From: Terriglobus tenax
GTDB lineage: Bacteria > Acidobacteriota > Terriglobia > Terriglobales > Acidobacteriaceae
Length of the DNA: 64,000 nt
Reading direction: 5' to 3'
NCBI RefSeq assembly: GCF_025685395.1
Contig: NZ_JAGSYA010000004.1
Location: forward strand, 1,860,001 to 1,924,000
Positions 39,336-48,451 of the stretch are shown piece after piece. The position numbers were made by a program, and so were the translations under genes. Each line of letters starts with the position of its first letter. Positions within the stretch are counted from its first letter, which is position 1. The notes below the pieces were generated by a model that searched no databases, was not told where the DNA came from, and was given only the letters and a program-made list of their open reading frames with translations.

Positions 39336-40385
39336 CTACTGAATCTGCACCAGTTCCCCATGTCCATGCGGAGCACCGGGGGAGGTCGTGCTCGTCTGCG
39401 GAGAGCGCCAGTGGTCGATGTAGCTGACCTGGTGCACGCAGCTGATGGTGCAGTTCGGGCTGCAGGTCTTCTCCGTCAGGAACTCGCGCTTCACATCTGC
39501 CGTGGTGTACTCGCGCAGCGGCTTGGCCGGGAAGCCGCGCTGCTGGCTGCAGTAATGCACCAGTCCGTTCTCGCAGACGTACAGGTAGCGCCCGCCGGCG
39601 CGGCAGCGCCAGTCGTTGGTCTGCCCGTTGGCAATAGCTTCCTGGAAGTGGTTGAAGCGTGAGTAGCTGCGGCGCGTCAGCTTGCGCACGGCGTCCCACA
39701 CGGAGCGTTCTTTTTCACCCAGCGGCTTCAGCTGGCCGTCGCCGTCGTGAATAATGCCGATCGTCGAGCTGAAACCCAGCCCCAGCGCGCGCGTTGAAAC
39801 CGTGTACGCGTCCTGCGGGTTGGCGATACCGCCGCCCACCACGGAGTTGATGTTCACGTGGAAGTCCGCATGCTCCGCCAGCCAGATCAGGCGCTGGTCC
39901 AGCACCTTCAGGCTCTTCTTGGAGACATCGTCCGGCATCACGTTGTCGATCGAGATCTGCATGTGGTCCAGCCCGGCCTTGTTCAGGCGCTGAATGCGCT
40001 CGGCGTTCAGCAGGTAGCCGTTGGTGATCATGCCGGCAATGGCACCGGTCTTGCGGATGCGCGCGATGATCTGGTCCAGCTCCGGGTGCAGCAGCGGCTC
40101 ACCACCGGAGATGGTGATGACCGACGTCCCCAGGCGTCCCAGGTCGTCGATACGGCGCAGCATTTCGTCCAGCGGCACCGGCTTCGAGTGGTCGTCATAC
40201 TCGTTGCAGTACGTGCATGCCAGGTTGCAGCGGCGCATCGGCACAATCTGCGCCATGTATGGGTGCCCGGTGGAGACAAGGGCGGAGGCAATGGAGCCGA
40301 GCTCGCGCAGGCGGCGCGTAGCAGCCTTCACGCGGCGGCGAAGCGGCATGGGGCGCGGATTGGTCTGGGTAGCGGGCTGCGACAT
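39336..40385 (-). CDS. radical SAM protein
   Basis: A 349-aa radical SAM enzyme. The cluster-binding CxxxCxxC is Cys53-Cys57-Cys60 in RRCNLACTYC, followed by ISGGEPLLHPELDQI (the GGEP SAM-binding motif). A C-terminal region with extra cysteines (WRCRAGGRYLYVCENGLVHYCSQ...CSPNCTISC) may bind a further iron-sulfur cluster, as in SPASM-type maturases. The substrate cannot be named; HpnH is excluded by N-terminus. Start 40385 has GGGAG upstream; longer frames are less likely. It diverges from a di-heme cytochrome. Confidence 0.85.
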   Translation of the reverse strand: MSQPATQTNPRPMPLRRRVKAATRRLRELGSIASALVSTGHPYMAQIVPMRRCNLACTYCNEYDDHSKPVPLDEMLRRIDDLGRLGTSVITISGGEPLLHPELDQIIARIRKTGAIAGMITNGYLLNAERIQRLNKAGLDHMQISIDNVMPDDVSKKSLKVLDQRLIWLAEHADFHVNINSVVGGGIANPQDAYTVSTRALGLGFSSTIGIIHDGDGQLKPLGEKERSVWDAVRKLTRRSYSRFNHFQEAIANGQTNDWRCRAGGRYLYVCENGLVHYCSQQRGFPAKPLREYTTADVKREFLTEKTCSPNCTISCVHQVSYIDHWRSPQTSTTSPGAPHGHGELVQIQ

Positions 40386-40521
40386 GACTCCCTTTATTCT
40401 ACCGCTCCCGCCCCATTCAGTGGGCCACGCCGCGCCCGGCGGTGGCATACTAGGATTCACCCATCCGTAATCTTTACCGGGCCCGTCTGAATCGTCTTGC
40501 CGTGTTTTTGAGGGAGCGCGC

Positions 40522-41961
40522 ATGCAGGGTTTTCTCCGCAGATTCCGCCGTCGTGGTGTAGCTATTGCCGCCGCAGCCGTTACTTTGCCCGTAGTTGCCC
40601 TTCTGGCGCAGGGCTATGGCGGCTCGCCCATCTGGTGGGAGGCCAACACCAACGAGAAAATGCCGCTGGCGGCGCTCTTCCGTGACAGCTCCGGCGACAT
40701 CCTGGTTTACAACCAGACCGGCGACATGGGCACCAACGGCCACCCGTTCTTCTCCAAACTAGGCAGCAATGGCCGCGCCTGCATCAGTTGCCACCAGCCC
40801 TCCGCCGCCATGAGCGTGAACCTGGAGCGGCTGAACGAGCGCTGGCAGCAGACCCGTGGCACCGACGCGGTCTTTGCCGCCGTGGACGGATCAAACTGCC
40901 CCAGCCTGCCGCAGCAGGAAAAGTCCTCACACTCCCTGTTGCTGGAGCACGGCCTCTTCCGCATCTATGAGGCCTGGCCAGCAGCGGGCGTAAAACCGGA
41001 GTTCACCATTGAGGTGATGCGCGACCCTACCGGCTGCAACACCGACGCGACCTACGGCCTGAAGTCCGCGCATCCCACCATCTCCGTCTACCGTCGACCG
41101 CGCATCGTGGGCAACTTCAAGTTCCTGTCCGCAGGAGCATTCACCGCCGACAGCCGCGCCACCACGCTGGAGCAGCAGGCATTGGACGCCATCCGGATGC
41201 ATGAACAGGGCAGCGGCAACATCGCCCCCGAAGACCTGCGGCAGATCGTCGAGTTTGAACAACAGGTCTATGTCGCGCAAAGCCGCGACGAACTGGGCGG
41301 CGACCTGACCGAGGTCGGCGGCCCGGAAGCTCTCGGCCCCTGGAACATGAGCCGCGCCAAAGCGGATGACCTGCACACGGTTGCCGACCGCAACCTGGCC
41401 CGCTTCCTTACCGTGCAGGACTGGCCAAACCACCATGCCCAGGGCGCCTCGCCGCGCGATGCCTTCCGCGAGTCCGTGCTTCGCGGCAGCCGCGTCTTCT
41501 CTGCGCGCACCTTCCACATTGGCGACACCGCCAACCTGGAGCACGTCGCCGGGCACAAGGCCGTGGACGGCACCTGCGCCACCTGCCACAGCGAGCGCTT
41601 TACCGGCGTCAGCAACCAGGGCGCATGGGCCGACATCGGCACCAGCATAAAGGGCTGGATCGGCGACCGGCCGGAACTGCCACTCTTCAAAATCACCTGC
41701 ACCACCGGCGCGGGACACCCGTACCTGGGCCGCGTCATCTACACCAACGACCCCGGGCGCGCCCTCGTCACCGGCAAGTGCGCCGACGTAGGATCGTTCG
41801 TCATGCAACAGCTTCGCGGCCTGCCCGCACGCGCGCCCTACTTCACCGCCGGCACCGCGAAGGATCTGCGCGAGGTCGTCGACTTCTACGACAAACGCTT
41901 CAGTGCCCACTTCTCCGAGCAGGAGAAGCAGGACCTGGTGAACTTTATGTCCGTACTCTAA
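40522..41961 (+). CDS. di-heme cytochrome c, peroxidase/MauG-like
   Basis: This 479-aa periplasmic protein has a signal peptide (about 1-30) and two heme c motifs: CISCH (Cys87, Cys90, His91) and CATCH (Cys352, Cys355, His356). Two hemes in a 400-500-aa body suit the bacterial di-heme cytochrome c peroxidase/MauG superfamily. Extra cysteines (NCPSLP, GCNTD, CTTGAGH, GKCADV) may form disulfides. GAGGGAG lies 5 bases ahead of the ATG. It is divergent from a radical SAM gene across 136 bases, which invites a shared cofactor role, but this is not shown. Confidence 0.82.
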   Translation: MQGFLRRFRRRGVAIAAAAVTLPVVALLAQGYGGSPIWWEANTNEKMPLAALFRDSSGDILVYNQTGDMGTNGHPFFSKLGSNGRACISCHQPSAAMSVNLERLNERWQQTRGTDAVFAAVDGSNCPSLPQQEKSSHSLLLEHGLFRIYEAWPAAGVKPEFTIEVMRDPTGCNTDATYGLKSAHPTISVYRRPRIVGNFKFLSAGAFTADSRATTLEQQALDAIRMHEQGSGNIAPEDLRQIVEFEQQVYVAQSRDELGGDLTEVGGPEALGPWNMSRAKADDLHTVADRNLARFLTVQDWPNHHAQGASPRDAFRESVLRGSRVFSARTFHIGDTANLEHVAGHKAVDGTCATCHSERFTGVSNQGAWADIGTSIKGWIGDRPELPLFKITCTTGAGHPYLGRVIYTNDPGRALVTGKCADVGSFVMQQLRGLPARAPYFTAGTAKDLREVVDFYDKRFSAHFSEQEKQDLVNFMSVL

Positions 41962-42088: not shown

Positions 42089-43009
42089 CTACGGAACGAA
42101 CTGCATCAGTAGAGCGTGGCGGGGCTTTCCCTCCTCCACCTCACTCTTCTTCTTGTCGTCCATGTTCACGGTCAGCGTCTGTTCTTTCTTTTCGCGAAGA
42201 ATGGTCACCGCTACGGGCTTTGACTTCCCTTCGTGAAGGGCGCGCAGCCAGTCATTACGCGAGGTCACCACGGTGCCGTTCACCTTCAGCACCACGTCGC
42301 CCGCCTTCATGCCAGACCGTTCGGCGGCGCTGTTCGGCTCCACCGTGCGCACCAGCAGCCCCTTCCCATTGGGCGAGCCAAAGAACTCGGCCAGCTGGGG
42401 CTCCATCGGGTCCAGCGTGACGCCAATGCGCGGCATCCCCAGGATCACCGCGGGGTTGGGAAGAAATTTGTCGCCAAAGCGGGCCAGCGAACTCTCTTCG
42501 CGGCGCGAACCGGCCGGCTGGTCAAGCCCGGGATCCGGCACCACAAAGTGCTGGCTCCATGCCTTCCGTTCAATCTCTGAACGGTTGGCCAGCACAACAT
42601 GCATCGTCTGCTGCTGGCCATCGCGGCTGATCAGCAATGACAGCTTGCGGCCCGGCGTGGACTCATGCAGAGCGCGGCGCAGCTGGTCTTCGCTTTCAAT
42701 CGTCACGCCATCCATCTGCAGAATCACATCATGCTCACGCAGGCCGGCCTTGCAGGCGGGCCCGTCGTGATCCAGCATAACCACCTCTACGCCACGGTTG
42801 TCCTTCAGCCGCAGAGTGGAGACCTGGTCCTGCGAGATGTCATGAAAATCAACGCCCAGGTAGCCCTGTGCGCGAGCGCCGGAGACCAGCACCATACGCC
42901 ACCGCGGTCCTGCTCCGTCCTGTGCATGCGCCGCCGCACCGAGCCCGGCCACCAGGGCAAGAGCTGCAAGGGACAGCGGAGTTAACCGGTAAGCCAGCAA
43001 GTGCTTCAT
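42089..43009 (-). CDS. double-PDZ periplasmic protein
   Basis: A 306-aa protein with a signal peptide (KHLLAYRLTPLSLAALALVAGLGAAAHA) and two PDZ domains (about 42-130 and 195-275): GYLGVDFHDIS...GPACKAGLREHDVILQMDG, and RIGVTLDP...SAAERSGMKAGDVVLKVNG. No protease domain is attached. PDZ domains bind C-terminal peptides of envelope proteins. It lies 62 bases downstream of the anti-sigma gene on the same strand, which suggests a sensing or signalling role in the ECF locus. Start 43009 is the signal-peptide Met. Confidence 0.85.
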   Translation of the reverse strand: MKHLLAYRLTPLSLAALALVAGLGAAAHAQDGAGPRWRMVLVSGARAQGYLGVDFHDISQDQVSTLRLKDNRGVEVVMLDHDGPACKAGLREHDVILQMDGVTIESEDQLRRALHESTPGRKLSLLISRDGQQQTMHVVLANRSEIERKAWSQHFVVPDPGLDQPAGSRREESSLARFGDKFLPNPAVILGMPRIGVTLDPMEPQLAEFFGSPNGKGLLVRTVEPNSAAERSGMKAGDVVLKVNGTVVTSRNDWLRALHEGKSKPVAVTILREKKEQTLTVNMDDKKKSEVEEGKPRHALLMQFVP

Positions 43010-43071
43010 GGAAGTACGCGCTTCTTCTCTCCACCCATTCGACGATGATCTTAGCCTGCTTGTCATCGCCG

Positions 43072-44046
43072 TTACTGGATCTGACTTGCGCCCTCAAGGG
43101 CCGTCATGGATGCATTACGAATATACGGATTCTCGTCGGTCGTCGAAACCGTGTGCAGTACCTGGCGCACGGACGAGTCAGCCTGCACCGGCTCCAGCAT
43201 ACTGATGGCCTGCATCCGGACATCCGAGTCATGGTCGTTCATGATCGACTCCAGCACGGCATCGCGCACGCGCTGGTCGCTGACCAGGTAGCGCTCCAGG
43301 CCATGCAGCGCCTTCATGCGGACCTGCGAATCGCGGTCGTAGCGCAGGCTCACCAGCAGGGTGTCACGCACCGTCTGGCCGCGTTTGTCGCTGGGCTGAT
43401 CATCGTCATCGCAGATATGACCGGCCTTGCAGCCTTCCGCCAGCAGGGCAACCGACGAGTCGCGCACATCGTTGCTGATGCCGTTCTTCGCGCCCATCAG
43501 CAGAAGCTGCTTGATCTGCGGATCGTCCAGCGTTCCCTGCGCCGTCTCCGGCACAACGCGGTTGTAGTTCACCTGCACCAGCTTGGAGTCCGGCGTCTGC
43601 ACAATCGAACTGATATTGGCGATGGCGGAGTCGGCCGAATGCTGCATCAGCATGGCCGGTGGCTTCTGCTCATGCGCTGTCTGGTAGCGGCTAAGCGCCG
43701 TGCCGCCCAGAAAACCGGCGCCCACCAGCAGCGTTGCCAGCGCGGGAGCCGCGTGAACATGATGCAGGCTGCCCATCACCAGGCTGCGCAGCCGCGCCAG
43801 CAGACCCGGCTCAGGCTCGGAGTCCAACGCCTCGTCCAGCCGGACACGGGCCTGCGCCAGCAGGTTGGGCGAAGGCTCCGCCTGTTCCACCGCCGCCAGC
43901 TCATCCTGCATCGCTGTCAGCAATTCAAGCTCCTGCCGACAGGCTTCACAACCTGCCAGGTGCTCGTCCAATTCGGGAAGTTTGTCGTCTATTAGCTCGC
44001 CGTATGCGAGCAGGACGACCTCGAGTTGTGCCGTTTCGCACTTCAT
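43072..44046 (-). CDS. zinc anti-sigma factor with HEAT-like repeats
   Basis: A 324-aa membrane anti-sigma factor. Its N-terminal ZAS motif is His29-x3-Cys33-x2-Cys36 in DEHLAGCEAC, which holds the partner ECF sigma. A transmembrane helix lies near residues 98-114 (LATLLVGAGFLGGTALS). The C-terminal half has HEAT-like units, such as VRMKALHGLERYLVSD and VRMQAISMLEPVQADS, a rare output for this role. It sits 120 bases downstream of an ECF sigma and just upstream of the PDZ gene. Release of the sigma upon an envelope cue is inferred. Confidence 0.88.
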   Translation of the reverse strand: MKCETAQLEVVLLAYGELIDDKLPELDEHLAGCEACRQELELLTAMQDELAAVEQAEPSPNLLAQARVRLDEALDSEPEPGLLARLRSLVMGSLHHVHAAPALATLLVGAGFLGGTALSRYQTAHEQKPPAMLMQHSADSAIANISSIVQTPDSKLVQVNYNRVVPETAQGTLDDPQIKQLLLMGAKNGISNDVRDSSVALLAEGCKAGHICDDDDQPSDKRGQTVRDTLLVSLRYDRDSQVRMKALHGLERYLVSDQRVRDAVLESIMNDHDSDVRMQAISMLEPVQADSSVRQVLHTVSTTDENPYIRNASMTALEGASQIQ

Positions 44047-44081
44047 CGCGTGTCTCTGCCTCTAACCAGCCTCAAAAATGG

Positions 44082-44093
44082 GTACCGCGGTAC
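44082..44093. promoter_or_regulatory. 12-bp palindrome between sigma and anti-sigma genes
   Basis: GTACCGCGGTAC is perfectly self-complementary, 36 bases upstream of the anti-sigma start. A regulatory or processing role is a guess. Confidence 0.35.
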
Positions 44094-44166
44094 TGCTCTT
44101 TATCCAGCGGATCGTCGTGAATGGCTCTGCCCTGCGTCCGCTTGGGGTACTGCGAAAAAACTGTTT

Positions 44167-44922
44167 CTACGCCCGGAGTTCGGCCAGATTCGACCGCAGT
44201 TTCCGGGTAGCGCGGAAGAGCGTGTTCTTTGCCGTCTCTTCCGTGGTGTTCAACATCTCTCCAATCGTCCGGAGCTTCAAACCCTGGTAATGCTTCAGCT
44301 CAAAGACCATCCGCTCACGCGGCGTCAATTTGCCCAGCGCAGACATGATGCGCTCGCCCATGTCCTTGCGGTCCAGCTCGCGGGCCGGGTTCGCCATCGC
44401 GCGATCGTCGGAGATGTTGGCCATCAGGTCCATCTCCTCGCCGGCCGCATCCGTCACCGTCGCCGGATCTTCGCGGCGGCTCTTACGCCGGCGCAGCGCG
44501 TCCAGGCAAAGGTTCGTCGCAATGCGGTACAGCCAGGTGTAAAACGAGCTGTCGAAGCGGAAGTTATGGATGTGCCGGTAAGCCTTCAGGAAGGCTTCCT
44601 GGTGGACATCCTGTGCATCCTGCTCGTTGCCCAGCATGTGCAGCGCAAGCCGCAGCACCGCCTGGTCATACCGGCGCACCAGAAGGTCAAAGCTGGCACG
44701 GTCGCCTCGTTGCGCCGCGCGAATCAGCTCATCGTCTTCCGCGCGTTGCGCTGCGCGGGCATCCATCTGAGCCTGAGTCAGCCTGCCGCCGTTACGCGCT
44801 GCCCGGGTTGCCGCCGCTTTTGCCATCGCTGCGGAAGATTCTACCCGGCGGAGGCCAATGCTGGCTCCTACACCGTTCACCAAAGGTGAAATGACGTTCG
44901 CATCCAACGTTTCTGTCTGCAT
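44167..44922 (-). CDS. ECF RNA polymerase sigma factor
   Basis: This 251-aa protein has the ECF sigma2 region (DQAVLRLALHMLGNEQDAQDVHQEAFLKAYRH) and sigma4 helix-turn-helix (LTPRERMVFELKHYQGLKLRTIGEMLN). A long N-terminal extension of about 60 residues, basic and low in structure, precedes sigma2, which is unusual. It heads the sigma/anti-sigma/PDZ locus. A 16-bp perfect palindrome at 44930-44945 lies just upstream and contains the apparent ribosome-binding site. Confidence 0.92.
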   Translation of the reverse strand: MQTETLDANVISPLVNGVGASIGLRRVESSAAMAKAAATRAARNGGRLTQAQMDARAAQRAEDDELIRAAQRGDRASFDLLVRRYDQAVLRLALHMLGNEQDAQDVHQEAFLKAYRHIHNFRFDSSFYTWLYRIATNLCLDALRRRKSRREDPATVTDAAGEEMDLMANISDDRAMANPARELDRKDMGERIMSALGKLTPRERMVFELKHYQGLKLRTIGEMLNTTEETAKNTLFRATRKLRSNLAELRA

Positions 44923-44945: not shown

Positions 44946-45005
44946 GAAATCAATCTCACTCTGATAGACCCCGCTCCCTTCAGAAGGTGAGCAAACCGCG
45001 AGGTT

Positions 45006-45043
45006 CGCATTGGCTTGCACCAATCATGGTGCAAGCCAATGCG
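45006..45043. repeat. perfect 16-bp inverted repeat hairpin
   Basis: CGCATTGGCTTGCACC and GGTGCAAGCCAATGCG form a perfect stem around AATCAT. It lies between the two minus-strand genes. There is no T-run, so it may act as a protein site or mRNA end, not a simple terminator. Confidence 0.6.
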
Positions 45044-45137: not shown

Positions 45138-47372
45138 TCAGGAAGCCATCAGCTCCGTACGAATCTTGCCGTTGAGCTTTTTGATCAGGTCAGCGACATC
45201 CTCCGGCGGCACCGGACGTGAGAACAGGTAACCCTGCCCGTAGCCGCAGTCCATCCGGATAAGCTGTGCCAGTTGTTGCTGGTTTTCAATGCCCTCGGCC
45301 AGCACGCGCATTCCCAGCGCCTTCCCCAGCGCCACAATCGACCGCGGCAGGCTCAGGCTTTCCTCAGTCTGGTCAATGCGCTGCACAAACGACCGGTCCA
45401 CCTTCAGGGCATCGAACGGAAAACGGTGCAGGTAGCTCAGCGAGGAGTAGCCTGTACCGAAGTCGTCCATGTCGATCCCGATGCCCAGCGCCTTGATCTC
45501 CCGGAAGAACTCGCCGGTGGTTTCGTCGCTGTTCAGCAGCAGGCTCTCCGTCACCTCCAGCCGCAGGTTATGCGGTGGCAGCCCTGCCGCCTGCAACTGA
45601 TCGCGGATAAAACCAATCAGGTTGCTGTCGCCAATCTGCTTGCCGGAGATGTTGACCGCGACATTCATCTCCTCGGTCAGGATGCCTTCCTGCCTCCACC
45701 GAGCCGACTGCTGAATCGCCTGGCTCAGTACGTTGAGCCCCAGCTCCCGGATCAGTCCCGTCTCCTCGGCCACGGGAATAAAGTCCGCCGGCGAAACCAT
45801 CCCGCGTACCGGATGCTTCCACCGCACCAGCGCCTCAAAGCCAACCACCTTGCCCGTACGCAGGACCACCTTGGGCTGGTAGTACAGGTGAATCTGGCCT
45901 TCTTCAATAGCCGTGCGAAGCTCCAGTTCCAGTTGCACCTTGCGAGCGGCCGATTCGCGCATATCCGGCAGAAAGAAAACGCTGGTCGCGCGTCCGGCGT
46001 TCTTGGCCTGGTACATCGCCAGGTCGGCATTCTCCAGCACAGTGCGCGCATCCTTTACGGTTGGATCGCTGAGCGCAATCCCGATACTGGCGGTCAGAAT
46101 CAGGGTTTGCTCGCCGCTGTAAACCGGTACCTGCAACGCCTCGCGCAGTTGCTCCACATAGGAAAAAACATTTGCCTCTTCCCCATACTCATTCAGGAAG
46201 ATGGCGAACTCATCACTACTCAGCCGCGCGGCGCAGCTATTGGAATGCGAGGACAGCCCCTGGCTGATCCGCCGGGCAATCTCCTCCAGCACCACATCGC
46301 CTTCCATGTGGCCCAGGCTGTCATTGATGCGCTTGAAGTGGTCCACATCCACGTACAGTACGGCGTAGGGGCCGCACTGCCTCCCCTGTTGATCCATACA
46401 TCCCTGCACCCGCTCAATGAAGGATGCACGGTTATACAGGCCGGTCAGCGGGTCCAGGGCACGAATGCGGGTGATATCGCGAAGTGCGCCCACCTTGCGC
46501 TGTGGCGCCCCCTTCGCGTCGGTCAGCACCAGCCCGCTGCATTCCATCCACCGCCATTCGCCGTCAGCGCGCAGATGACGGTACTCGCAGGAGAAATTCC
46601 GGTGCTGCTCCACCGCCTGGTTTAACTGGTCCAGCATCCGGCGGCGGTCTTCTGCATGGATATGCCGCAGGCAGTCCCGCAGACGCAGCGTATGCTCCTT
46701 CTCTTCAAAACCAAACATGGCGCTGCAGCGGGGCGAAAGATAGATGTCGCCCACACGACAATCCCAGTCCCATATCCCGTCCGATGTCGCGCGCGTAGCC
46801 AGCCGGTACCGCTCGCCCACAATGTCAATCTGCTTCTGCGCGGCTTCCAGTTGCAGAGCTGTCGTCCTCTGGTCAATCAGGTAGGAGGCTGCATTGGCCA
46901 GATGCTCCAGCAACTCCACTTCGCCCGGCGTCAGGTTCCGTACCTGCGGCGAGATAATGCAGAAGCTGCCCAGCCGTGTGCCATCCTTGGTCGTCAGCGG
47001 AGCGCTGGCATACAAACGAATATTCGGATCGCCCGTAACAAAAGGATTTGTCGCAAAACGCAGGTCCAGCCGCGCATCCGGCACAAGGGTAGGTCCTTCC
47101 GTCAGCAGCGAGTGCGCGCAAAAAGAAAGATCGCGCGAGGTTTCCCGCAGATCCAGCCCATGCACAGATTTGAAGAACTGGCGGTGCTCATCCACAAGAG
47201 AAATAAGGGCTACCGGGACGGAGAAGATCTTCACGGCCATGGCCGTCAGCTCATCAAAAGCCGACTCGGACGGAGTATCCAGAATGCAAAGTCCTCGCAG
47301 CACCGCGAGGCGCTCTTCCTCATTCCGCGGCAGGGCCGCTGGCATAGCTCCTGAGAGGTGCGACACGATCAT
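45138..47372 (-). CDS. GAF-PAS-GGDEF-EAL c-di-GMP protein
   Basis: A 744-aa protein with GAF (about 22-165), PAS (about 186-300), GGDEF (about 305-460) and EAL (about 480-735) domains. The cyclase motif is SSDEF (385-389), degenerate at the two glycines, while the EAL motif EALVRW (513) and DDFGTGYSSL are intact. It likely acts as a c-di-GMP phosphodiesterase, with a regulatory or non-catalytic GGDEF. No transmembrane helix is seen, so it is cytoplasmic. It lies upstream of the ECF sigma on the same strand, about 215 bases apart. Confidence 0.93.
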   Translation of the reverse strand: MIVSHLSGAMPAALPRNEEERLAVLRGLCILDTPSESAFDELTAMAVKIFSVPVALISLVDEHRQFFKSVHGLDLRETSRDLSFCAHSLLTEGPTLVPDARLDLRFATNPFVTGDPNIRLYASAPLTTKDGTRLGSFCIISPQVRNLTPGEVELLEHLANAASYLIDQRTTALQLEAAQKQIDIVGERYRLATRATSDGIWDWDCRVGDIYLSPRCSAMFGFEEKEHTLRLRDCLRHIHAEDRRRMLDQLNQAVEQHRNFSCEYRHLRADGEWRWMECSGLVLTDAKGAPQRKVGALRDITRIRALDPLTGLYNRASFIERVQGCMDQQGRQCGPYAVLYVDVDHFKRINDSLGHMEGDVVLEEIARRISQGLSSHSNSCAARLSSDEFAIFLNEYGEEANVFSYVEQLREALQVPVYSGEQTLILTASIGIALSDPTVKDARTVLENADLAMYQAKNAGRATSVFFLPDMRESAARKVQLELELRTAIEEGQIHLYYQPKVVLRTGKVVGFEALVRWKHPVRGMVSPADFIPVAEETGLIRELGLNVLSQAIQQSARWRQEGILTEEMNVAVNISGKQIGDSNLIGFIRDQLQAAGLPPHNLRLEVTESLLLNSDETTGEFFREIKALGIGIDMDDFGTGYSSLSYLHRFPFDALKVDRSFVQRIDQTEESLSLPRSIVALGKALGMRVLAEGIENQQQLAQLIRMDCGYGQGYLFSRPVPPEDVADLIKKLNGKIRTELMAS

Positions 47373-47508: not shown

Positions 47509-47817
47509 TCAGGCCCGGCGGTACGACACCAGCCACAACGTCAACAGGGCCAGCTCCACCGCAAACAACATCTCCATCAGGGTGAAGCTCGAAGCTGTAT
47601 TCGAAGCGAGCACCAGCACCCCCACCGCCAGCAGCACGGCGCACACCACCGCGAGCCGGCGTGCATAGGTGTGACGGAACCCGCGTACCTCGGCCTGCTG
47701 CGGCATCTGCGAGGCCATGCACACCGCGAAGTCCTGCGGCACAGCGACCTGTGGCGCATGGTCAAGGGCCTGCGTAATCCGCTGGTCAAGCTCGGTAGGA
47801 ACAAACTCCGGACTCAT
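47509..47817 (-). CDS. small membrane protein, possible anti-sigma partner
   Basis: A 102-aa protein with two C-terminal transmembrane helices (RLAVVCAVLLAVGVLVLAS and LMEMLFAVELALLTLWLVSY). Its N-terminal 55 residues are soluble. It overlaps the upstream ECF gene by 4 bases (ATGA), so it is translationally coupled. No zinc motif is seen. By position it may be the sigma's membrane regulator; family not recognised. Confidence 0.65.
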   Translation of the reverse strand: MSPEFVPTELDQRITQALDHAPQVAVPQDFAVCMASQMPQQAEVRGFRHTYARRLAVVCAVLLAVGVLVLASNTASSFTLMEMLFAVELALLTLWLVSYRRA

Positions 47818-48431
47818 AGGCTCACCCTTTCCTGAATGCTAGCAGCACGCCCGGTGTGGGTCATCGCCTGCTCCACACGCTGCCTCAATCGCGTGCGTGC
47901 GCGGTGCAGATGCGTCCGCACCGTGTTGATCGGCAAACTCAACACCACCGCAATCTGCTCATAGGTCTGCTCTTCCTGGTGAAACATCGTGAGCACGGCA
48001 CGCTCCACCGGGCTTAGCGTCATCATCTGCTGCTGCACCAGCGACCAGAACTCGTTATCCAGCAGTTGCCGCTCGGCCCCGCGATCATTTCCGGGCAGCC
48101 GTTCTTCCATCGGCAAATCGCTCTCATCTTCCTTCGACGAAAGTGACAGCAGCGGGTCATCCACCCTGCGGCGGCGCTTCCATTCATCCTGCGCCACATT
48201 CACCGTAATACGGTACAGATAGGTCGACAACATCGCCTCTCCGCGAAAGCTCGGCAGAGCGCGGTAAAGCCGCAGAAAGACCTCCTGCGCCAGGTCTTCC
48301 AGATTCTCCCGCCGGTTCACCAGGCGCGCCAGCGTGCGAAAGACCTGCTGCTGGTGTTCCTGAACCATCTGCTCGAATTGGGCTGCCGTCTGCAAAGCGG
48401 GTAAGACTGCGATTGTCTCCGAAAGTTTCAT
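47814..48431 (-). CDS. ECF RNA polymerase sigma factor
   Basis: A sigma factor of about 205 aa with sigma2 (FRTLARLVNRRENLEDLAQEVFLRLYRAL) and sigma4 (LSPVERAVLTMFHQEEQTYEQIAVVLSLPINTVRTHLHRARTRLRQ). It is coupled to a small membrane protein. The ATG at 48431 was preferred to a GTG at 48440. An 11-bp inverted repeat (48421-48451) spans the start codon. It diverges from a DUF6249-like membrane protein gene. Confidence 0.92.
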   Translation of the reverse strand: MKLSETIAVLPALQTAAQFEQMVQEHQQQVFRTLARLVNRRENLEDLAQEVFLRLYRALPSFRGEAMLSTYLYRITVNVAQDEWKRRRRVDDPLLSLSSKEDESDLPMEERLPGNDRGAERQLLDNEFWSLVQQQMMTLSPVERAVLTMFHQEEQTYEQIAVVLSLPINTVRTHLHRARTRLRQRVEQAMTHTGRAASIQERVSL

Positions 48432-48451
48432 GCCATACACATGAAACTTTC
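48421..48451. promoter_or_regulatory. inverted repeat across the ECF sigma start
   Basis: GAAAGTTTCAT and ATGAAACTTTC form perfect 11-bp arms with a 9-base gap, and one arm contains the start codon. It could be an operator shared with the divergent gene, or an mRNA hairpin that hides the start. Confidence 0.5.

What the first reader, a model, noticed from the sequence alone, without database searches (positions are those of the whole stretch)
42089..44922. ECF sigma, HEAT-repeat anti-sigma and double-PDZ protein as one signalling locus
Seen: an ECF sigma, then a ZAS anti-sigma (His29/Cys33/Cys36, one transmembrane helix), then a double-PDZ exported protein, all on the minus strand. The anti-sigma C-terminal half looks like HEAT repeats, not the usual RskA-like or RseA-like sensory part. 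Known: ZAS anti-sigmas hold ECF sigmas until proteolysis. Inferred: the HEAT repeats and PDZ protein together read an envelope ligand, which would be an uncommon route.
Basis: partly seen in the sequence, partly recalled or inferred. Interest (0 to 1): 0.55.

Follow-up and report, generated by a model that had tools for sequence, protein, structure and literature searches.

The report
Self-regulating sigma switch with HEAT anti-sigma
A soil bacterium related to Terriglobus carries a small gene set, kept together across its family, in which a transcription factor is probably held at the membrane by a protein whose outer half is a coil of HEAT repeats, next to an exported double-PDZ protein; it looks like a self-regulating envelope-stress switch of an unusual build.

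Summary
In detail: on the minus strand lie an ECF sigma (44167-44922), a one-TM zinc-motif anti-sigma (43072-44046) and an exported double-PDZ protein (42089-43009). HEAT repeats are confirmed by Pfam and an AlphaFold model.

Sigma lies upstream in 77 of 77 informative Acidobacteriaceae loci and PDZ downstream in 76 of 76. One complete genome (G035) has the PDZ gene elsewhere.

New findings:
(1) An ECF-type promoter, GCT[ACT]AC-N16-[CGT]GTC[CT]A, precedes sigma in 44 of 81 representatives (shuffles 0.035). In this genome it occurs three times, only here between genes. This implies autoregulation.
(2) Elsewhere in the phylum the usual arrangement is sigma, HEAT anti-sigma, Toastrack (DUF4097) protein.
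(3) In the window's clade Toastrack is gone and a periplasmic Cys pair (C206/C212) appears in the HEAT domain, on one branch.
(4) The anti-sigma there ends in near-invariant Ile-Gln.

Best reading: an autoregulated envelope-stress module. Ligand, proteolysis and HEAT-PDZ contact are inferred. New variant of a known kind; the main ECF classification paper was not held, so priority is uncertain.

The parts
44965..44992 (-). Predicted ECF-type promoter of the operon: GCTCACC (-35 box, 44986-44992), 15 bases, GGTCTA (-10 box, 44965-44970)
   Evidence: Conserved motif in 44 of 81 PDZ-positive representatives, shuffle mean 0.035; place and letters checked; 42 bases before the sigma ATG
44167..44922 (-). 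ECF sigma factor, 251 aa; about 60 residues precede the conserved part, so the start codon is not certain
   Evidence: Sigma70_r2 and r4_2; sigma70-ECF superfamily model passes its cut-off
43072..44046 (-). Anti-sigma factor, 324 aa: zinc-motif domain, TM segment, linker, sheet, HEAT domain
43891..44046 (-). Zinc-motif anti-sigma domain, residues 1-52 (Cys3, His29, Cys33, Cys36)
   Evidence: Motif residues checked, invariant in A1; helices in the model
43687..43749 (-). Predicted TM segment, residues about 100-120
   Evidence: Hydropathy maximum 1.6 at residue 100; helix 101-124 in the model at low confidence
43531..43617 (-). Three-strand sheet ahead of the HEAT repeats, residues 144-172
   Evidence: AlphaFold model, pLDDT about 90-94
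43084..43521 (-). HEAT-repeat domain, residues 176-321 (eight helices)
   Evidence: Pfam HEAT_2, model, structure matches over 141-324
43411..43431 (-). C-x5-C loop (Cys206, Cys212) inside the HEAT domain, specific to the clade without linked Toastrack
   Evidence: 110 of 111 loci of that type, 0 of 49 with Toastrack; coordinates
43075..43080 (-). C-terminal Ile-Gln of the anti-sigma, near-invariant in the clade
   Evidence: Gln in 61 of 64 and Ile in 52 of 64 representatives
42089..43009 (-). Exported double-PDZ protein without protease domain, 306 aa
42590..42865 (-). First PDZ domain, residues 49-140
   Evidence: Model, Pfam, coordinates
42164..42424 (-). Second PDZ domain, residues 196-282
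   Evidence: Model, Pfam, coordinates

Best explanation
An autoregulated ECF sigma / membrane anti-sigma envelope-stress module. Shown by sequence: the gene order sigma, HEAT anti-sigma, PDZ; a conserved ECF-type promoter before the sigma gene; an N-terminal zinc-motif domain, one TM segment, then a C-terminal HEAT domain; a double-PDZ protein with a signal-like start and no protease domain. Inferred: the N-terminal domain holds sigma at the membrane; the HEAT domain lies in the periplasm and is the input surface; the PDZ protein (together with Toastrack in the arrangement found elsewhere) is a periplasmic partner that binds exposed protein ends, or the anti-sigma tail itself, and sets how easily the anti-sigma is released or cut, with RseP-type intramembrane proteolysis as the likeliest release. 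Freed sigma mainly raises its own operon, so the HEAT and PDZ proteins are both feedback parts and a main output.
For: Domains. Gene order: sigma in 77 of 77 and PDZ in 76 of 76 informative named loci; a PDZ gene upstream, as internal control, in 1 of 54. Promoter: 44 of 81 PDZ-positive representatives, dinucleotide-shuffle mean 0.035 and maximum 2, and almost only at one spacing. The same pattern occurs three times in the window genome (reversed control 16); the other two copies lie inside genes. N-in topology: more K+R in the 15 residues before the TM than after it in 76 of 109 representatives, equal in 18. An RseP homologue is present (306.5 bits, cut-off 147.55). A Toastrack-like gene follows the HEAT anti-sigma in 27 of 28 loci from other families; 29 of 36 such proteins match PF13349 at E<=0.001.
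Against: No experiment. No direct sign of HEAT-PDZ contact. A PDZ gene was found in only 5 of 28 loci of other families and lies elsewhere in G035, where no good promoter copy was seen before it. The window's own TM has 2 K+R on either side, so its topology rests on the family. The promoter is assigned to this sigma by position and conservation only; 37 of 81 representatives lack an exact match. A wider regulon with weaker sites cannot be excluded.
Confidence: 0.55

Rival explanations
1. The PDZ protein is only an output (a periplasmic chaperone or scaffold made on demand) and takes no part in sensing; the HEAT domain alone, or with unlinked partners, receives the signal.
For: The promoter sits before the whole set; a PDZ gene was found in only 5 of 28 HEAT anti-sigma loci of other families; in G035 it is unlinked.
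Against: Very tight linkage in the family (76 of 76), and the conserved anti-sigma C-terminus in PDZ-bearing lineages would be unexplained.
Confidence: 0.28
2. In this clade the HEAT domain is a periplasmic redox sensor: Cys206 and Cys212 form a disulfide whose reduction or oxidation frees sigma.
For: The pair is kept in 110 of 111 loci of this type and is mostly the only cysteine content after the TM.
Against: A structural disulfide would look the same; gain and Toastrack loss are one event on the tree, and L185 lost Toastrack without the pair.
Confidence: 0.1
3. The C-terminal HEAT domain is cytoplasmic (TM reversed, or not a TM), and the module reads an internal signal.
For: Most HEAT proteins known to me are cytoplasmic (recalled); the window's TM is only moderately hydrophobic (1.6) with balanced flanks.
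Against: The hydrophobic segment reaches 1.2 or more in 105 of 109 representatives, and the charge bias favours N-in in 76 of 109; sigma binding needs the N-terminus inside.
Confidence: 0.06
4. Chance neighbours without a common function.
For: None found beyond G035.
Against: 76 of 76 and 77 of 77 linkage with 1 of 54 in the control direction.
Confidence: 0.01

Closest known systems
E. coli RpoE-RseA-RseB with DegS and RseP
   Same: ECF sigma, one-TM anti-sigma, a second periplasmic protein made with it (RseB), PDZ-based sensing of protein ends in DegS, an RseP protease in the genome (PMC8103513, passages).
   Different: Anti-sigma outer half is HEAT; the PDZ protein has no protease domain; zinc motif present here.
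Class I (ASDI/ZAS) anti-sigma factors such as RsrA, ChrR, RsiW
   Same: N-terminal Hx3Cx2C domain; weak similarity to an RsrA model (21.5 bits, cut-off 62.5).
   Different: HEAT domain as C-terminal half; a term search of the class I survey found no HEAT-repeat or Acidobacteria mention (PMC7406223, passages).
Toastrack (DUF4097) proteins of Lia and PSP envelope-stress responses
   Same: In relatives a Toastrack-like gene is part of the cluster.
   Different: Absent from the window's cluster; coupled here to an ECF/HEAT anti-sigma pair instead of LiaRS or PspC (PMC11237479, passages).
HEAT / alphaRep repeat proteins
   Same: Fold of residues 176-321.
   Different: Fused behind a TM segment and an anti-sigma domain.

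Membership tests
ECF sigma factors | Only sigma2 and sigma4 domains | tested here: met
   Sigma70_r2 and Sigma70_r4_2/r4 matches, no other sigma region listed
ECF sigma factors | Assignment to a numbered ECF group | not testable with these tools
   ECF classification not held; of the 25 best NCBIfam models shown, no equivalog passes its cut-off
Class I (ASDI/ZAS) anti-sigma factors | Hx3Cx2C motif in an N-terminal helical domain, encoded beside an ECF sigma | tested here: met
   H29, C33, C36, invariant in A1; zf-HC2 below cut-off in the window protein but matched by 70 of 76 in A3
Class I (ASDI/ZAS) anti-sigma factors | Binds and inhibits the cognate sigma | not tested
   Needs an experiment or a complex model
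HEAT-repeat proteins | Tandem antiparallel helix pairs matching HEAT profiles | tested here: met
   HEAT_2 37.4 bits over cut-off 27.7; eight helices
RskA- or RseA-type anti-sigma C-terminal domains | Match to those Pfam families (names recalled) | tested here: not met
   No such family among Pfam matches at E<=0.1
HtrA/DegS proteases | Trypsin-like protease domain ahead of PDZ | tested here: not met
   Pfam shows PDZ-type domains only; DegP/DegS models match only over their PDZ parts and below cut-off
Toastrack (DUF4097) envelope-stress clusters | Toastrack protein in the cluster | tested here: not met
   None between anti-sigma and PDZ in the window; two DUF4097 loci elsewhere in the genome

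The most novel reading that the evidence does not exclude
The periplasmic HEAT domain is a new kind of anti-sigma sensor whose partner was swapped during evolution. In the arrangement seen across the phylum it is read together with a Toastrack beta-helix. In the clade that holds the window, a disulfide-capable loop (C206/C212) took over, and the anti-sigma's conserved Ile-Gln C-terminus is captured by the operon's own double-PDZ protein, so that competing protein ends or reduction of the loop frees sigma.
Probability: 0.15. Interest if true: 0.68.

Novelty: new variant of a known kind. Interest (0 to 1): 0.5.

Why it matters
Acidobacteriota are abundant in soils, and I found little on their envelope-stress sigma factors in the papers I could search. 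This module was found in all 18 congeners and 16 of 18 other genomes of the family examined, has a readable promoter whose only copy between genes in this genome is its own, and its partners changed once on the tree. That makes a general question testable with few genes: how membrane anti-sigma factors exchange their periplasmic sensors. It also links Toastrack proteins, known from Lia and PSP responses, to ECF signalling through a HEAT anti-sigma.

Tried and rejected
Chance neighbours: rejected. PDZ downstream in 76 of 76 against 1 of 54 upstream; four other ECF/anti-sigma loci of the family (L050-L053) show no PDZ match (L050 is short).

DegS/HtrA-type protease: rejected for the PDZ protein; Pfam finds PDZ-type domains only, and DegP/DegS models cover only their PDZ parts, below cut-off.

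Cys pair as an adaptive replacement for Toastrack: not established. Loss and gain fall on one branch, and L185 has no Toastrack and no Cys pair.

PDZ-bound C-terminal tail: endings [ILVMF][QDEYF] occur in 61 of 64 Cys-clade, 14 of 21 other PDZ-positive, 0 of 17 PDZ-lacking and 3 of 7 undetermined representatives. The sequences are related, Gln is not a usual PDZ ligand end (recalled), and G035 keeps the tail with an unlinked PDZ gene.

Wider regulon: GCTCACC-N15..17-GTCTA gives 2 hits in the window genome, GCTYAC-N16..17-SGTCTA 1, and the family pattern gives 3 against 16 for the reversed control; the two extra ones lie inside ORFs; the extra one was not placed. In 51 genomes GCTYAC-N16-SGTCTA gives 30 hits, 11 of them just upstream of this operon (positions compared by eye). 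No other recurrent target was sought by orthology. In G035 a relaxed pattern gives 10 hits against 44 for the reversed control. The sigma-70 and terminator scans were at chance level.

Structure comparison: all Foldseek E-values were above 0.001 (best 2.2e-3, an alphaRep), and Z 12-14 lies in the range the tool warns about for repeats, so HEAT rests on sequence and model together.

Literature: the searches returned no paper; one search returned one, PMC3174227, whose passages show HEAT only in a COG list; some searches returned listings in which I saw no HEAT anti-sigma, showing only 10 of 396 papers. The ECF reclassification paper (10.1093/nar/gkaa1229) was not held, so this group may already be listed there.

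Rows dropped: promoter and tail counts use representatives under 80% identity, 109 of 165 anti-sigmas over 280 aa, 106 of them with enough upstream sequence. Loci cut by contig ends were left out of the informative counts. The sigma tree used 74 of 108 rows, the Cys clade thinned at random, by a quick search with several long branches. In one search L201 counts as having no Toastrack because its match overlaps the anti-sigma's end.

Full report
Observation. The sigma ORF is a clear ECF sigma with about 60 residues before the conserved part; among the 25 best NCBIfam models shown, no equivalog passes its cut-off, while the ECF superfamily model does. The anti-sigma has Cys3, His29, Cys33 and Cys36, all invariant in alignment A1 of 36 sequences. 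The gaps are 120 bases from sigma to anti-sigma and 62 from anti-sigma to the PDZ start at 43009.

HEAT domain. HEAT_2 passes its Pfam cut-off, and 76 of 76 members of A3 match it at E<=0.01. AlphaFold on A3 gives mean pLDDT 86: helices for the N-terminal domain, a TM helix at 101-124, a weak linker (125-138 under 50), three strands at 144-172 and eight helices at 176-321, mostly at 90-98; the loop near 211-220 is weaker at 67. The best solved-structure matches are artificial HEAT (alphaRep) and related repeat proteins over residues 141-324, with no Foldseek E-value under 0.001.

PDZ protein. Two confident PDZ domains; the N-terminus, the linker and the C-terminal tail are weak. No protease domain was found.

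Distribution. In 61 genomes (own plus 60 relatives), all 18 congeners and 16 of 18 other genomes of the family match at E 2.3e-42 or better; G020 has only a zinc-domain match and G023 none. In the other 24 genomes (same order or class) 10 match at 1e-5 or better. A profile search of 395 genomes of the phylum matched 321 at 1e-5, but many listed rows cover only the zinc domain and the list is cut; rows of about 275 or more of 310 positions occur in at least 14 families other than the window's. The search for related loci gave 80 named loci, the best 80 of 119; the nearest named strain is Terriglobus albidus at 86%. The search did not reach outside the phylum.

Gene order. Of the 80 loci, those with enough flank show sigma upstream in 77 of 77 and PDZ downstream in 76 of 76; a PDZ gene upstream was seen in 1 of 54. 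In other genera of the family and other families of the class a Toastrack-like gene lies between anti-sigma and PDZ. In 28 loci from other families Toastrack is present in 27 and PDZ in 5, some loci being cut short. Of 36 Toastrack-like proteins 29 match PF13349 at E<=0.001 and 7 do not. The window genome has DUF4097 proteins elsewhere but not here. Exception: in G035 no PDZ lies within 5 kb of the anti-sigma, and a 49% identical PDZ protein lies about 0.3 Mb away.

Trade of parts. A C-x5-C pair in the HEAT domain (window C206/C212) is present in 110 of 111 anti-sigmas followed by PDZ without Toastrack, and in 0 of 49 followed by Toastrack; among representatives 62 of 63 and 0 of 42. On a sigma tree of 74 rows the Cys clade is one branch (SH-aLRT 99), next to a Toastrack-bearing row; Toastrack presence needs two changes, the second being L185, which lacks the pair. 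So the association rests on one event. That the Toastrack arrangement is the older one follows from its spread, not from a rooted test.

Promoter. A two-box count before the sigma gene found GCTCA/GTCTA pairs in 20 of 81 against at most 4 in three letter shuffles. The form GCT[ACT]AC-N16-[CGT]GTC[CT]A is present in 44 of 81 PDZ-positive and 4 of 25 other representatives; dinucleotide shuffles give 0.035 and 0.01 on average. It was refined on the same sequences, so the shuffles understate chance somewhat. At N17 there are 6, at N20 1, at other spacings from 10 to 23 none. The window copy is at 44965-44992. In the window genome the same pattern occurs 3 times against 16 for the reversed control; the two others lie inside ORFs of at least 330 codons. 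ECF systems are described as mostly positively autoregulated, with CGT in the -10 box (PMC8103513, passages).

C-terminus. In 64 Cys-clade representatives the last residue is Gln in 61 and the one before is Ile in 52, while positions -3 to -7 vary. This may be a functional free end or a structural cap.

Mechanism. Shown: domain content, gene order, promoter conservation. Inferred: sigma sequestration by the zinc-motif domain (known for class I anti-sigmas; PMC7406223, passages), periplasmic placement of HEAT, release by proteolysis with the RseP homologue, the PDZ role, and the ligand. The closest functional parallel is E. coli RpoE-RseA-RseB-DegS, where a PDZ domain senses protein ends and a separate periplasmic protein binds RseA (PMC8103513). 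The review of PSP and Lia systems mentions an operonically linked sigma factor near Toastrack genes; a term search of its main text found no mention of anti-sigma factors or Acidobacteriota (PMC11237479, passages). It argues that Toastrack is intracellular, whereas most of the proteins here begin with signal-peptide-like stretches (by eye), an open conflict.

Verdict. The locus is real, conserved and probably autoregulated; the ligand-reading claim is open. It is a new variant of ECF/class I anti-sigma signalling, as far as the held literature shows.

Noticed in passing
47509-48440 (-): A second ECF sigma (47814-48440) followed by an overlapping small protein (47509-47817) of anti-sigma size with no clear Pfam match, about 2.6 kb upstream of the sigma studied here.
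   Followed up: no
45006-45043: A perfect inverted repeat (17-base arms, CGCATTGGCTTGCACCA, 4-base loop) sits just upstream of the -35 box. A 16-base arm pattern is found only here in the window genome and not in two congeners.
   Followed up: partly
39336-40523 (-): A radical SAM protein gene beyond the PDZ gene is found downstream in 25 of 62 named loci with enough flank, and a similar-looking gene stays beside the PDZ gene in G035 where the operon is split.
   Followed up: partly
45138-47372 (-): GAF-PAS-GGDEF-EAL protein upstream of the sigma gene; found in 1 of 55 named loci, so it is unlikely to belong to the module.
   Followed up: yes
40522-41961 (+): Cytochrome c / MauG-like protein (weak Pfam matches) on the opposite strand after the PDZ gene; found in 2 of 62 named loci.
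   Followed up: yes
L191 (G194), L213 (G148): In L191 the anti-sigma frame runs on to 679 residues; in L213 the anti-sigma matches in two separate pieces, as if the gene were broken.
   Followed up: no
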